From positions 1 to 57,328 of the forward strand of contig CAIXGR010000032.1 in the NCBI GenBank assembly GCA_903919075.1: a DNA stretch of 57,328 bases. Reading direction: 5' to 3'. The translations under genes were made by a program, and so were the position numbers. The stretch comes from an uncultured Bacteroidota bacterium. GTDB taxonomy: Bacteria > Bacteroidota > Bacteroidia > Chitinophagales > LD1. Positions 7,354 through 29,316 of this stretch are shown one piece after another (within the stretch, counting starts at the first letter, position 1; each line of letters begins with the position of its first letter). The notes below the pieces were generated by a model, which did no database searches, was not told the origin of the DNA, and was given only the letters and a program-made list of their open reading frames with translations.

Positions 7354-7731
7354 GAAGGGGTTGGTTTGAATGTTAGTGGTAGTTAAATGTAGAAAAAATC
7401 AATATCGGTAGTTATTTATTTTTCGTAATTGCCATGCAAAAACCAAAAATTGCATAAAACAAGCTGCCAGCTAATGAATTTTCTGAGGTAAGATCAATTT
7501 GGGGACAAGAACCGAAGGCCGGCCCCTGCCTTTCAGGGAGGGTAACATTCAAAAAAAACTTAAATACCTTTTTAAACCTGTTGTTGATTGCCTCAAACCA
7601 ATGCATTCATTCTTTAAAACGCACAAATTTGATAGGAGGAAAATTTCTTATATCATATATTTACAGATAAAAACGCGGGCTTATATGCGATATTGTTCGG
7701 TTTTTGAAAATTATTTTTGGGGGTGGCTTCC

Positions 7732-7830
7732 GGTTGGCGGGGACGCCAACCTGGGGGGGTATTTCACATAGCCTTACCCCGGCTTGCTTCGCTCGCCAAC
7801 CCTCTCCACTTTGTGGAGAAGGGAATACAA
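7732..7830. repeat. Intergenic repeat, copy 2, with GGTTGGC hairpin
   Basis: GGTTGGCGGGGACGCCAACC (7732-7751) is a perfect 7-bp stem with a 6-base loop; the same element with one base changed occurs at 26316-26335. It is followed at 7774-7827 by the block shared with 1650-1700 (TTGCTTCGCTC, ACCCTCTCCA, TGGAGAAGG). The order of the two modules relative to each other differs between copies, so they behave as separate units that tend to occur together. Confidence 0.6.
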
Positions 7831-21966: not shown

Positions 21967-22638
21967 ATGAATAAAGAAATTTACCTGCTTCGCGGAAAAG
22001 ACGATGAAAGCTATGCGCAATTTAAAGAGAGAATTTCCGGCATTGTATCAAAACTTACAGCAGCGTTAAATCCGCAGGCCATAAAATTTACCCTTACCGA
22101 AAAAGCGCCACCTGCTTTATCTATTATTCCTTTTAGTAAAAAGAAAATGAGTGCCATTTCGGTTTGCAATCCGCAACCGGGCAATATTGAATTTATTAAA
22201 CTGGAACCCGGTTTTTGCGGCAGCTACCGGGTAACCGAAGCCATACCGGTAGCCTATAAACCCGATTGGAAAACGGGCCAAGCCACCCCCGGCGCCTGCT
22301 TGTTTACTTTATTCAGCAAGAAAAAAAATATTGATTACCCTACTTTTATTCACCTGTGGCAAAATATACATACCCCTCATTCGCTTCTTATACACCCACT
22401 GTGGAATTATGTAAGAAATGAAGTGACTAAAAAAATCTATGAAGATTCAATTTCGTTTGATGGTATTGTTGAAGAACAGATGCGCGAAGAGCGCAACCTG
22501 CTTAACCCTTTCAGGTTTTGGGGCAACCCCTTGGTAATTTTACCGCGCATGCTAAAAGAGCTTTATGATACCAAGTCGTTTATAGATTATAGTAGTATGG
22601 AAACTTATTTGGCGGCTGAGTATTTGGTTAAAGTTTAA
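21967..22638 (+). CDS. EthD-type dimeric alpha/beta barrel protein
   Basis: A 223-residue cytoplasmic protein without signal peptide. The second half contains YPTFIHLWQNIHTPHSLLIHP, the His/Trp pattern of EthD-like ferredoxin-fold proteins, which form dimeric barrels and often bind or convert hydrophobic substrates in degradation or biosynthesis pathways. The first half (KFTLTEKAPPA, FIKLEPGFCGSYRVTEAIP) looks like a second, diverged copy of the same fold. It is tail to tail with the SDR gene, overlapping by 4 bp, and may serve the same pathway. The EthD assignment rests on a weak motif. Confidence 0.65.
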   Translation: MNKEIYLLRGKDDESYAQFKERISGIVSKLTAALNPQAIKFTLTEKAPPALSIIPFSKKKMSAISVCNPQPGNIEFIKLEPGFCGSYRVTEAIPVAYKPDWKTGQATPGACLFTLFSKKKNIDYPTFIHLWQNIHTPHSLLIHPLWNYVRNEVTKKIYEDSISFDGIVEEQMREERNLLNPFRFWGNPLVILPRMLKELYDTKSFIDYSSMETYLAAEYLVKV

Positions 22639-24913: not shown

Positions 24914-26095
24914 TTATTTAAGAGATGTAATTTTAACTACGCTGCAATCCGGCACTTCCGTTTTAATATTTTCCTTTAACCGGTACCAGCGCAGGCACAT
25001 GGTTCCTTCATTGTGATGACAGCTGTCAATCCAATTAGGAGTGCCGGGGTTGTTTTTCGATACAATTATTTTCACACTGCCATCAGCAGCCGGTATGGCG
25101 GAATGCTTATTAATGCAAACAGGAAAGTACCGGTAATCAAGCGACTCCATCCAATAGTTGTTCAACTGAAAATTCCAGCTTTCGCAATCCGGTGGGGTAA
25201 AGCTAATTACCAGCACTTCATCATCCTGCAATTTCCAATAACTGTGGTGGTAAATAATGCTGGCATCGCCACCCGCCGCGTTCGATACCTCTGGACTAAA
25301 AATGGGCAACTGGTTAGCGTGCTTTTTAAACCCGTCGGCCCACTTGGCAAACAGCATCGGTGCACCGGCTACAAACAACGCGGCAGTATCAAGGCCCTTA
25401 TCAACTTTTTCGGCGGTAAGCGGGGCGGGGGCTTTTTGGCCGTTCATGTTTTCAATTTTAAGCGCAGCCGGTGTTTCGTTGGCCCGGTTAAAAAAAGTTT
25501 GGCGCACAATCAACAGGCTCGATGCCTCCTCAATCTTCAACCAGTTTTTGCCCTGGCGCTCGTTACTCATTATTATCTCGAAAGTGCCGTCTGGTTCCAG
25601 TTGCAGGTCTTTACCTTCCAGCTTGCCGCAGGGGGCCATGCCGCCCGGTTGGCCGTAAACGCCGTTCTGTGTAAAAAAACCTATGTAATCAATCGTATTG
25701 CGGCTACCGGTAATGCGGTACTGGTACCGGCCGCTTATTTGGGCGTTTAAATAATAATTATCGGGGTTATCGGCGCCCAGCTTTATGGTTTCGTGCACCA
25801 TACGGCACAACTCCGGAAACTCCACATCGCCATACTCCACATAGGCCTCTAAGGCTGCGCGGGTAAGGCGCGAAAGATAGCGCACGCCCTCGGCCTGGTT
25901 AAAAGCATCGCGCGGGGTGCCGGGGTATAGCAGCGCGGCACCTGCGGCTTTAAGATGGTCGCAAAACTCGTCCCAGCTTTTACCGGTTACTATTCTTTGC
26001 GCGTGCACATCGGCTTCGGCTTTACCGGTTATGCGCCACCACAGCAGACGTATGCCCTTTAATAGTTTTAAAAATGCGAATAAAATTTTTCCCAT
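24914..26095 (-). CDS. DUF1214 domain-containing protein
   Basis: A 393-residue protein. A hydrophobic N-terminus (about residues 3-20) may be a membrane anchor. The conserved DUF1214 block lies in the C-terminal half: WKLQDDEVLVISF, CESWNFQLNNYWMESLDYR and GTPNWIDSCHHNEGTMCLRW. The N-terminal half contains RYQYRITGSRNTIDYIGF and DGTFEIIMS, typical of the longer forms. The biochemical function is unknown; homologues cluster with sulfotransferases and dehydrogenases. It is the first gene of the operon, and its stop abuts the sulfotransferase ATG. Confidence 0.88.
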   Translation of the reverse strand: MGKILFAFLKLLKGIRLLWWRITGKAEADVHAQRIVTGKSWDEFCDHLKAAGAALLYPGTPRDAFNQAEGVRYLSRLTRAALEAYVEYGDVEFPELCRMVHETIKLGADNPDNYYLNAQISGRYQYRITGSRNTIDYIGFFTQNGVYGQPGGMAPCGKLEGKDLQLEPDGTFEIIMSNERQGKNWLKIEEASSLLIVRQTFFNRANETPAALKIENMNGQKAPAPLTAEKVDKGLDTAALFVAGAPMLFAKWADGFKKHANQLPIFSPEVSNAAGGDASIIYHHSYWKLQDDEVLVISFTPPDCESWNFQLNNYWMESLDYRYFPVCINKHSAIPAADGSVKIIVSKNNPGTPNWIDSCHHNEGTMCLRWYRLKENIKTEVPDCSVVKITSLK

Positions 26096-26198
26096 AAATA
26101 TCCCTTAGTTAAACCAACCATTACACTATGCCCGAAACTAATTTATTAATTTGATTGGGAATAGTGGAATTTGTTTTTTTGAAAGCTATAAACACCAG

Positions 26199-26340
26199 GG
26201 CGTATCCACCGAGGCGGTGGCCGCGCTATTACTGCAATCTTTTTGCGCCTCGCAAGGAGCCATGTAGCAAAAAGGATTTTCGTTCTATCGCTTACGCGGG
26301 GAAAAAAATGCTTACGGTTGGCGGGGATGCCAACCGCGAT
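26199..26340. repeat. Interspersed GC-rich repeat, left flank of the nuclease gene
   Basis: Modules GGGCGTATCC, GGCCGCGCTAT, ACTGCAA and CGTTCTATCGCTTACGC occur in this order (26199-26297), the same order as in the reverse complement of 27965-28065. A GGTTGGCGGGGATGCCAACC hairpin follows (26316-26335), as at 7732. It resembles a family of interspersed intergenic repeats; no coding capacity is seen. Confidence 0.65.
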
Positions 26341-26360
26341 AGAAAAGTTTAGAAGGTTCT

Positions 26361-27599
26361 CTATTGGGGTAAATGAAAAAATTGAACTGCTAATTTAATT
26401 TCTTTATTCCTATCTGTTGGTAAACAAAATATATAGTTAAACCAACCTTGATCATTTTTTTGCAACTCTTTTATAAAATGTTTATGGCCTATTGTTGCTT
26501 GTTTTACAGTTTCAAGAACGGGAATTATTTCCTTGTTTCGAACAAAAATTATTACAGCTGTCTTTGAATCCCGCCAAGTTAAGTAACCAAGAAGTTGGTC
26601 GATTGTTTCTAAAAAATTCTTTTCACCTGACCAAAATTTGCACTCTGCAATAAAAACTACAGAACTATCATATCTCAGCTGAATATCTGTCTTACCGCTT
26701 TTATTAAATGTTTCACCGCTTGCACTTCCAAGTTCAAAATTGGGATCAAGAATCATAAGAATGTGATCACGCAAATCTTCTTCTTTTTTGCCTGCATAAA
26801 CGCTTGGCATCCTTTCAAAATTCTTACCTACATCATTTATAAACTTGAGAATTTTATGATAATTTGCGTCATCAAGTGTTGGTTCTGCTTTAAAACTTTT
26901 TTCATGAACGATGGGTTTTATAAATATTTTTTCTCTCAATTGGGGTTTTGGAATTGCAAATGTTGTAGCAACATTGTCCTTTTTTCTTAATGGAACGCCT
27001 AACGACGAAAGAAAGTTATTCTTACTTAATAGTTTTTGCTTTCGGCGATTAAGAAATATTACGATTTGATCTTTTAATGTATTATTAAACTTATCAATAT
27101 CATTTTTTAACGAATTATAGATACCATGAATACGATTTGCATGCTTTTCATAATTACCCGTAATTTCGTCTGCCTTGTTTGAAAAATTAACAAATTCTAT
27201 TACTAGTGTATCGTCTCGAATTTCGAAATTTGCCCTGCTTCCATACATCATAGAAGCAGGACAATATCTCAAAAGATTAATATCGCCAGAACAAGGAATG
27301 AAGAATCGAATTATTTCCCTTTTGTAAGTCTTTCCTGGATATACATCAAAACTAATTGGGAAACGTTCTGCTTGCACATCACCCTCATAGCTATCTACAC
27401 AAAATTGATCAAAATGTATTTCAGGAACTTTCAACTGGTACTGAATTTCTAAATGATTTATATAATCTGTTTCATTTACGCTTAAAATGTAATTTTCGCT
27501 TTCCCGCTCAATAGAAGATTGAATGTTTTCATAGGCTCTTGTAAAAAGTTCAGAAATTCTTTCTCCACTGAAAGCAATTGAATTATTTCCACTACGCAT
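26361..27599 (-). CDS. Orphan PD-(D/E)XK nuclease-like protein
   Basis: A 412-residue protein with no signal peptide. The C-terminal part (about 260-355) has the layout of a PD-(D/E)XK nuclease: Glu273/Glu274 in a helix (KKEEDLRDHI), Asp305 in GKTDIQL, the E-x-K pair Glu319-Lys321 in FIAECKFW, and Gln335 in IDQLLGYLTW. This is close to the Mrr-like restriction fold. The N-terminal 200 residues (VPEIHFDQFCVDSYEG, then a beta-rich part and helices around 150-190) match no family I recognise. The gene stands alone, is more AT-rich than its neighbours, lacks the ACCGGT motif common around it, and is flanked by inverted repeats; transfer is likely. A role in anti-phage defence is possible but not shown. 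Shedu (DUF4263) was considered and not supported. Confidence 0.75.
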   Translation of the reverse strand: MRSGNNSIAFSGERISELFTRAYENIQSSIERESENYILSVNETDYINHLEIQYQLKVPEIHFDQFCVDSYEGDVQAERFPISFDVYPGKTYKREIIRFFIPCSGDINLLRYCPASMMYGSRANFEIRDDTLVIEFVNFSNKADEITGNYEKHANRIHGIYNSLKNDIDKFNNTLKDQIVIFLNRRKQKLLSKNNFLSSLGVPLRKKDNVATTFAIPKPQLREKIFIKPIVHEKSFKAEPTLDDANYHKILKFINDVGKNFERMPSVYAGKKEEDLRDHILMILDPNFELGSASGETFNKSGKTDIQLRYDSSVVFIAECKFWSGEKNFLETIDQLLGYLTWRDSKTAVIIFVRNKEIIPVLETVKQATIGHKHFIKELQKNDQGWFNYIFCLPTDRNKEIKLAVQFFHLPQ

Positions 27600-28101
27600 T
27601 ATTTTTTTTATTTCAAAAATAAAAGCTTTTTCATGAGGTTTATAGAAATTTCAAAGCTACCATTCCCGCTAACTCTAGACCATTTCAGCAGCATCCCGCT
27701 TCGCTCGCCTAAGCCGGTAAACTCTGTCTACAACCATTAAAAAGTTACGTACCTACGGCACGCCATTTTGCTACCTGTGTGTTTACTACAAAGCTTAAAT
27801 CGCTACGCGATAAATACATAACGGCACCGGTGCCGTTACCCGTTGCTCCGCGCAGCCTCTAACTCCCAAAATGGAAGAACCGCTCCCCTACTTACTGCAT
27901 TTGGCTTTGGTTTCCCAGCTTCAGGTGTAATTAAGATTCCTCATTATCGCTCGGAACGAAAATGGCAACTTGCGTAAGCGATAGAACGGAAAGCCCGGAG
28001 CGCGGCCCTGCGAGCGAGGACTTGCAGTGATAGCGCGGCCCGAGGCTTTGCGAGGGATACGCCCAGTACGCCGTTCCTTTTGGCATTACCAGGTATATGC
28101 C
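27600..28101. other. Repeat-rich spacer without genes
   Basis: Between the nuclease and a transporter remnant. It holds short repeat modules (CCCGCTTCGCTCGCC near 27700, AAATCGCTACGCGAT near 27797), the perfect palindrome GGCACCGGTGCC near 27823, and the right-flank copy of the inverted repeat at 27965-28065. No open frame has a convincing protein. Confidence 0.55.
27965..28065. repeat. Interspersed GC-rich repeat, right flank (inverted copy)
   Basis: In reverse complement it reads GGGCGTATCC, GGGCCGCGCTATC, ACTGCAAG, then CGTTCTATCGCTTACGC, the module order of 26199-26297. The two copies therefore face each other around the nuclease gene. The middle segments differ, so it is not a recent exact duplication. 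It overlaps slightly with the 3' side of the transporter remnant region. Confidence 0.65.
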
Positions 28102-28389
28102 TCAAATTATAAAGGCTACGCCCAACAGGCGGGTGGTATCGATGGGCCTTACGGCGGAGTTGAACCAGCCGAATTGGTCGATAAGTACGGCGGCAATTAT
28201 TTGTCCGGTTAACATAAGGCCGATGCGGGGTGTAATAATGGTTATCATAACCACGTAGGTAGGCACTATTAAGCCACCAAGATACCCGTACCAGGGCGCC
28301 GCAGCAAACGAGCTAACCGGAGCCCGAGCACCGGTAATAAGCGCCAGTGCAAAGAAGATGTAATTTCCGTTTTTTATGTTGTATGTATT
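28102..28389 (-). pseudogene. DMT-family (DUF606/YdcZ-like) transporter remnant
   Basis: An open frame of 95 residues with no start codon, running from a stop at 28390-28392 to TGA at 28102-28104. It shows three hydrophobic segments: NYIFFALALITG, PWYGYLGGLIVPTYVVMITI and LMLTGQIIAALLIDQFG. The motifs GGL.VP.YV and LGLM.TGQ..A.L.IDQFGWF are typical of the DUF606 small multidrug-type transporters (usually about 140-150 residues). The N-terminal third is missing and the upstream sequence shows no homology, so it is a truncated relic lying in the repeat island. Confidence 0.75.
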
Positions 28390-28794: not shown

Positions 28795-29316
28795 ATGAAA
28801 AAAATTTGGTTTATTCCGGTTATTACAGTCGCGTTATTATTGTCAAATTTAAGCTATGGGCAAACAAGCTGGACTAAGTACAGCAGCAGCCTGGGCTCTT
28901 TTTCGATAAACTTTCCGGGGGCCTATGAGGAAAGTACACAAATGGATACTAGCGATGCTGGCAAGCCGTTTAAAATACACTTTGCCAGCTACACGCCTAA
29001 CGACGATGTTGTATATATGGCCGGTTGGATAGATATGTATAATATTTACCCGGCTGATAAATCGCTAAAGCAAATACTTGAAGACAGCCGCGATGGTGCC
29101 ATGGAATCGTTAAAAGCCACCAATATTAAAACCCTTAACACCAGCCTGGTGGGTGAGCCATATATTGAGTTTACTTTTGGCTCGGAGGATATGGTAGGCA
29201 AGGAACGTATTTATTTAATTAATAAATTTCAATACTCCATTATTACACTGTTTGCCAAAACCAAAGTATTGCCTGCCGATGCAGATAAATTTATTACTTC
29301 GTTTAAGCATTTGTAG
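28795..29316 (+). CDS. Secreted protein of unknown function
   Basis: A 173-residue protein with a signal peptide (MKKIWFIPVITVALLLSNLSYG|Q). The mature part has FSINFPGAYEEST near residue 42, then VVYMAGWIDMYNIYP and ERIYLINKFQYSIITLFA, and ends KFITSFKHL. This alternating beta pattern resembles the PsbP/DcrB-like fold seen in many small exported proteins, but I cannot name a family. ATG is preceded by a very AT-rich leader. It stands alone, with 72 bp to the next gene. Confidence 0.7.
   Translation: MKKIWFIPVITVALLLSNLSYGQTSWTKYSSSLGSFSINFPGAYEESTQMDTSDAGKPFKIHFASYTPNDDVVYMAGWIDMYNIYPADKSLKQILEDSRDGAMESLKATNIKTLNTSLVGEPYIEFTFGSEDMVGKERIYLINKFQYSIITLFAKTKVLPADADKFITSFKHL

What the first reader, a model, noticed from the sequence alone, without database searches (positions are those of the whole stretch)
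26199..28065. Orphan PD-(D/E)XK nuclease gene between facing copies of a repeat
The 412-residue protein has a restriction-like active site (E274, D305, E319-x-K321, Q335) joined to an N-terminal domain I cannot place. It is AT-rich, lacks ACCGGT, and sits alone in an island bordered by inverted repeat copies (26199-26297 and 27965-28065) with a transporter relic next door. This layout suits a recently gained cargo gene, perhaps a single-protein defence system.
Basis: partly seen in the sequence, partly recalled or inferred. Interest (0 to 1): 0.65.

Follow-up and report, generated by a model that had tools for sequence, protein, structure and literature searches.

The report
Lone candidate phage-defence nuclease gene
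This gene makes a single protein with a probable DNA-cutting domain; it belongs to an already catalogued but, as far as I could find, untested family of bacterial anti-virus candidates that in some other microbes sits inside known defence operons.

Summary
The ORF is real and intact (26361-27599, minus, 412 aa). It is a full-length member of PADLOC candidate family PDC-S54 (E 2e-138); no paper in the held library names that family. E274, D305, E319, K321 and Q335 are invariant in 76 of 76 aligned sequences. The model shows a restriction-endonuclease-like fold at about 244-412, a confident N-terminal domain (1-199) without a convincing solved match, and a conserved, poorly ordered linker. Elsewhere type I RM genes lie in the same stretch in 16 of 101 distinct loci against 0 of 38 control stretches, and the nuclease domain also occurs on another N-terminus near retron genes. 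Here no recognised defence gene is adjacent, and of 60 genomes searched only the host has it. The inverted repeats are real, with no other close copy found in this genome, but a related repeat is scattered in other Bacteroidota. Most likely: a horizontally gained single-protein anti-phage nuclease that works like Shedu but is not of Shedu sequence. Activity is untested. New member of a known, uncharacterised kind.

The parts
26361..27599 (-). PDC-S54 family protein, 412 aa: orphan N-terminal domain, linker, PD-(D/E)XK nuclease domain
   Evidence: PADLOC PDLC05036 E 2e-138; no Pfam or NCBIfam match at E<=10
27003..27599 (-). N-terminal domain, residues 1-199 (alpha/beta plus helix 143-199); no convincing solved fold
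   Evidence: AlphaFold2 pLDDT 92.4 for residues 1-205 alone; best VIA Z 6.0; Foldseek nothing at E<=0.001
26871..27002 (-). conserved linker, residues 200-243
   Evidence: 10 columns with the top residue in at least 80% of rows, against 8 in residues 1-199; mean pLDDT 33-56 in residues 201-240
26364..26870 (-). nuclease domain, residues 244-412, with E274, D305, E319-x-K321, Q335
26198..26297 (+). inverted repeat copy A, outer end GGGCGTATCC
27972..28064 (-). inverted repeat copy B, outer end GGGCGTATCC
28105..28389 (-). relic of a YdcZ-type DMT transporter; first 42 of 140 profile positions not matched
   Evidence: PF04657 43-135/140, E 1.6e-18

Best explanation
A horizontally acquired, single-gene anti-phage nuclease of the PADLOC candidate family PDC-S54. 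The C-terminal PD-(D/E)XK domain cuts DNA; the orphan N-terminal domain with its 57-residue helix senses an infection cue and probably oligomerises; the conserved flexible linker holds the nuclease off until the cue arrives. Shown by calculation: family membership, invariant catalytic residues, nuclease-like fold, domain modularity, patchy distribution, defence context of relatives. Inferred: DNA as substrate, autoinhibition, oligomer, cue, antiviral effect.
For: PDC-S54 match E 2e-138; all 76 aligned sequences match that model at E<=0.01. Catalytic residues in 76 of 76, placed on an alpha-beta-beta-beta-alpha-beta core. VIA-align rows on the nuclease part: BamHI Z 8.5, 4.3 A, 137 aligned; OkrAI 8.3, 3.8 A, 139; McrC 8.0, 4.1 A, 115; Can2 7.2, 3.3 A, 112; NucC 6.8, 3.4 A, 125; E. 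coli SduA 5.9, 4.2 A, 127; B. cereus Shedu nuclease domain 5.5, 4.7 A, 121; Hachiman entry 8zue 5.4, 4.5 A, 136. Type I RM genes in 13 of 83 and 4 of 19 homologue loci against 0 of 38 control stretches (Fisher p 0.0065 with one probably duplicated contig counted twice). HsdS followed by PDC-S54 at gaps of -4 to 8 nt in L008, L011, L046, L059 and L151. PADLOC models matched by sets of 129 proteins: 139 for nearest genes, 180 for genes at least 6.5 kb away, 34 for random control genes. Beside an integrase and a VapE/DUF5906 protein in L017-L019. Nuclease domain on another N-terminus beside a helicase and near retron genes on an E. coli plasmid. Patchy: 20 of 395 phylum genomes, host included; 1 of 60 searched genomes, the host itself; Pedobacter homologue 63.5% identical, same-order G126 homologue 48.8%.
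Against: No recognised defence gene among the window neighbours scanned with Pfam. No paper on the family found. PADLOC counts are lower for the nearest genes than for genes at least 6.5 kb away, so only the region is defence-rich. The Hsd profiles were built from target loci, which flatters the contrast; 85 of 101 distinct loci show no type I gene by these profiles. Z scores are middling, and rows that are not nucleases lie in the same range as SduA (gephyrin 5.8, acetyl-CoA carboxylase 5.2); Foldseek alone gave nothing at E<=0.001. No conserved partner or cue identified.
Confidence: 0.6

Rival explanations
1. A type IV-like restriction enzyme: the N-terminal domain reads modified phage DNA and the nuclease cuts it, complementing the type I RM operons in which some relatives sit.
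For: Near-contact with HsdS in several loci; McrC among the best nuclease matches, Z 8.0, 4.1 A, 115 aligned.
Against: No recognised modified-base reader (no Pfam match); N-domain without a convincing fold match; 85 of 101 distinct loci show no type I gene by the local profiles, although other RM types were not tested that way.
Confidence: 0.2
2. An accessory subunit of type I RM, or of a satellite element, that has come loose here and has no stand-alone function.
For: Gaps of -4 to 8 nt to HsdS in five loci; no recognised partner in this window.
Against: 85 of 101 distinct loci show no type I gene by the local profiles, though many stretches are short; the catalytic set is kept in 76 of 76.
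Confidence: 0.12
3. A selfish or mobile-element gene whose role is spread of the element rather than defence of the host.
For: Integrase-linked copies in L017-L019; partial matches in 2 phage records and matches in 21 plasmid records; inverted repeats around this copy.
Against: No homing-nuclease family matched; type I RM embedding in relatives; the repeat type also occurs scattered in other genomes. Insertion sites were not compared.
Confidence: 0.08

Closest known systems
PDC-S54 (PADLOC-DB 2.0.0, PDLC05036)
   Same: Full-length match, residues 6-411 on 4-407 of 410, E 2e-138; single gene
   Different: No difference found in the protein; this copy has no recognised defence neighbour
Shedu (SduA)
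   Same: Single protein with an N-terminal domain joined to a C-terminal PD-(D/E)XK nuclease; SduA 8ps4 aligns to 256-409 at Z 5.9, 4.2 A, 127 residues. Passages of PMC12904381 describe an N-terminal clamp that binds DNA ends and relief of nuclease autoinhibition
   Different: Window protein matches no Pfam family and only PDC-S54 in PADLOC at E<=10
Nuclease domains of BamHI/OkrAI, McrC, NucC and Can2
   Same: Restriction-endonuclease-like fold, VIA Z 6.0-8.5
   Different: No convincing sequence match to any solved chain; different N-terminal part

Membership tests
PDC-S54 | Full-length match to the family profile | tested here: met
   E 2e-138, 4-407 of 410 positions; 76 of 76 aligned sequences match
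PDC-S54 | Family members embedded in immune operons | tested here: met
   Type I RM genes in 13 of 83 and 4 of 19 loci (16 of 101 distinct), 0 of 38 control stretches; not true of this copy
PDC-S54 | Antiviral activity | not testable with these tools
   No paper in the held library contains 'PDC-S54'; [quoted passage not shown]
PD-(D/E)XK nuclease superfamily | Conserved D, (D/E)xK and accessory residues on the common core | tested here: met
   E274, D305, E319, K321, Q335 in 76 of 76; E274 in helix 273-287, D305 in strand 302-310, E319 and K321 in strand 313-322, Q335 in helix 326-339
PD-(D/E)XK nuclease superfamily | Restriction-endonuclease fold | tested here: met
   Top VIA rows are restriction enzymes and McrC, BamHI Z 8.5, 4.3 A, 137 aligned; middling Z, and Foldseek alone gave nothing at E<=0.001
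Shedu (SduA) | SduA sequence family | tested here: not met
   0 Pfam families and only PDC-S54 in PADLOC at E<=10; that both libraries hold Shedu models is recalled, not looked up
Shedu (SduA) | Homologous N-terminal clamp | tested here: inconclusive
   The N-domain model was searched alone; see Tried and rejected
Transposon with terminal inverted repeats | Target-site duplication | tested here: inconclusive
   None seen by eye in the sequence; no formal search
Transposon with terminal inverted repeats | Transposase between the repeats | tested here: not met
   The only ORF of 80 aa or more between the repeats is the nuclease gene

The most novel reading that the evidence does not exclude
A new sensor class: the 200-residue N-terminal domain is a fold not yet solved that recognises an infection cue and releases a tethered nuclease through the conserved linker; where the gene is coupled to HsdS it acts as a fail-safe when type I restriction is beaten.
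Probability: 0.22. Interest if true: 0.62.

Novelty: new member of a known kind. Interest (0 to 1): 0.38.

Why it matters
PDC-S54 is spread over bacteria and archaea yet has no described mechanism that I could find. The dissection gives exact handles for a first test (E319/K321, a separable N-domain, a conserved linker) and shows the nuclease domain reused on a different N-terminus in a defence setting.

Tried and rejected
Shedu membership: no profile match. N-terminal domain searched alone: Foldseek nothing at E<=0.001; best VIA rows are ribosome recycling factor (Z 6.0, 3.4 A, 80 aligned) and type III secretion chaperones (5.3 and below), taken as no match; no SduA row in that list, which excludes nothing. 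Viral fold library: nothing at E<=0.001. PDB by sequence: only weak coiled-coil or chance-like rows, best E 0.023 with the profile. PHROGs: one family of unknown function, phrog_9664, E 2.7e-05 over 254-366. Pfam on the 76 aligned sequences: no family in more than 6 of them at E<=1, first 25 of 89 families shown.

Repeats as transposon ends: not supported, as above. The search with the whole 121-base copy B found only itself and missed copy A, so diverged copies elsewhere in the genome can have been missed. A wider form of the repeat was found in 6 of 247 phylum genomes and not in the host by that strict pattern. Copy B aligns to the G126 copy at 57 against a shuffle maximum of 25 of 1000, but copy A scores 18 against 28, so A is tied to that family only through B. 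Against five more loci B scored above shuffles in three (L198, L200, L201; L198 is again G126) and not in two (L199, L202); A scored above them in none. My recollection that this repeat type is common in Bacteroidota comes from no call; by these strict patterns it is rare.

Empty site: the left-flank gene order is shared with G420 (four genes) and G426 (three genes), both without PDC-S54, but no right-flank gene matched there, so no exact junction. The flank gene 24914-26095 is itself found in only 3 of 40 genomes, host included; the right-flank gene 28795-29316 matched in 3 of 18 same-genus genomes, host included.

Control caveats: PADLOC figures are numbers of models matched, with many models per system; the random set holds Cas I-E models by chance. 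Near and far sets come from 43 of 83 loci, those with long enough flanks. The 38 control stretches include some short contigs (from 1.1 kb). The 19 phylum loci include half-length or weak matches (L160-L162, L168). Dropped before counts: 3 of 104 loci without an ORF match; 8 of 83 loci not in the alignment because of ORF length, split ORFs or no ORF match. One of the 20 phylum matches (G349) is E 6.9e-4 with two stops inside and may be chance.

Full report
What is there. The ORF 26361-27599 on the minus strand encodes 412 residues. It is the only match in its genome, on G000 contig 32. It has no Pfam or NCBIfam match but matches the PADLOC candidate family PDC-S54 over its full length, E 2e-138. 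PDC names stem from a guilt-by-embedding study: reference 15 of PMC12988326 is Payne et al. 2024, a preprint that I did not read. Of PMC12988326 I saw passages and that reference line; [quoted passage not shown] No paper in the held library contains 'PDC-S54'. Passages of PMC13356809 name other PDCs; 'S54' is not in its main text.

Anatomy. In an alignment of the window protein with 75 homologues, E274, D305, E319, K321 and Q335 are invariant, as are R277, E296 and R343. The AlphaFold model (mean pLDDT 83.7, pTM 0.54) has an alpha/beta N-terminal part ending in helix 143-199, a poorly ordered stretch at about 201-240, and an alpha-beta-beta-beta-alpha-beta nuclease core. Foldseek on the whole model gave nothing at E<=0.001. 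The second-look aligner lists restriction enzymes, McrC, Can2, NucC, SduA, Shedu and a Hachiman entry on about 240-412, Z 5.4 to 8.5, and also rows that are not nucleases, such as gephyrin at 5.8 and acetyl-CoA carboxylase at 5.2. These Z values are middling; together with the invariant catalytic set in the right places I take the fold as a restriction-endonuclease fold. The N-terminal domain alone is confidently modelled (pLDDT 92.4) but has no convincing match. The linker is more conserved than the N-terminal domain: 10 columns at 80% or more in 44 residues, against 8 in 199. That suggests a working peptide, perhaps inhibitory; this is inference.

Modularity. Some relatives hold only one half: an N-terminal half alone of about 205 residues in L102 and L103, and a nuclease half on another N-terminus in L101. 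On E. coli plasmid pEC_CBJ3C a 344-residue protein shares only the nuclease half (35% over 167 columns) and sits next to a DEAD/DEAH helicase and about 5.6 kb from genes annotated as a retron reverse transcriptase and the retron Ec78 effector PtuA. Five of the 20 listed plasmid matches cover only about 238-411 of the query.

Distribution. 196 relatives were confirmed in genome contigs, of which 80 were kept, from Bacteroidota to archaea; 3 in viral contigs; 2 of 50,697 phage records, both partial, and 21 of 72,556 plasmid records. In the phylum sample 20 of 395 genomes match, host included; five of these are split, half-length or weak (G139, G170, G245, G315, G349). In 60 genomes made up of the host and relatives, 17 of them of the same genus, only the host matches. 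The nearest homologue is from Pedobacter (63.5%); the one in the same order, G126, has 48.8%. This is the pattern of horizontal gain, not of a core gene; no tree was built.

Neighbourhoods. Local profiles of HsdM, HsdS and HsdR found type I RM genes in 13 of 83 homologue loci and in 4 of 19 from the phylum sample, against 0 of 38 control stretches (0.69 Mb) from genomes that themselves hold a match. In L008, L046 and L151 the order is HsdM, HsdS, PDC-S54, HsdR, and in five loci (L008, L011, L046, L059, L151) HsdS and PDC-S54 are -4 to 8 nt apart. Pfam confirms N6_Mtase/HsdM_N, Methylase_S and an HsdR in L008. The profiles were built from these same loci, so the contrast is somewhat flattered. 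As a second measure, 129 nearest genes match 139 PADLOC models, 129 genes at least 6.5 kb away match 180, and 129 random control genes match 34: the region, not the nearest gene, is rich in defence models. In L017-L019 the gene lies between an integrase and a VapE/DUF5906 protein, which looks like a satellite or integrative element.

This locus. The Pfam-scanned neighbours are a DUF1214 protein, a sulfotransferase, a short-chain dehydrogenase, a YdcZ relic, a DUF1801/OmdA protein and an SNF2 helicase; two more, 21967-22638 and 28795-29316, have no match. None is a clear defence gene; the window neighbours were not scanned with PADLOC. The two inverted repeats are real, and I found no other close copy in this genome, though a diverged one could have been missed. 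A related palindromic repeat occurs scattered in other Bacteroidota, for example 7 copies on 7 contigs of G126 by a strict pattern; the one on the contig that holds G126's PDC-S54 gene is about 91 kb from it. So the pair more likely marks foreign DNA from a lineage with such repeats than a transposable cassette; this is inference.

Mechanism and verdict. I propose a single-protein, infection-triggered nuclease that works like Shedu (passages of PMC12904381 describe an N-terminal clamp for DNA ends and relief of autoinhibition) but lies outside that sequence family. My confidence is about 0.6 for defence by a nuclease; the cue, the oligomer and the autoinhibition are guesses.

Noticed in passing
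window 1-57328: ACCGGT occurs 104 times against 8.8 expected from base composition, though close to the 100 expected from its inner words.
   Followed up: partly
window 26310-26335 and 7726-7751: A 26-nt stretch holding GGTTGGCGGGG(A/G)(T/C)GCCAACC-type dyads recurs at 92% identity, perhaps a terminator or repeat type.
   Followed up: no
L189:7467-8501: E. coli plasmid protein of 344 aa joins the same nuclease domain to another N-terminus beside a helicase and near retron genes; no near match in the E. coli genome collection.
   Followed up: partly
L017, L018, L019: Shared element: integrase, 244-aa unknown, PDC-S54, 92-aa unknown, VapE/DUF5906 protein in Epilithonimonas, Chryseobacterium and Soonwooa.
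   Followed up: partly
L102:1498-2112, L103:1516-2133: Stand-alone homologues of the N-terminal domain, about 205 aa, without a nuclease half.
   Followed up: no
L188:16299-16379: Scattered palindromic repeat of Bacteroidota related to repeat copy B.
   Followed up: partly
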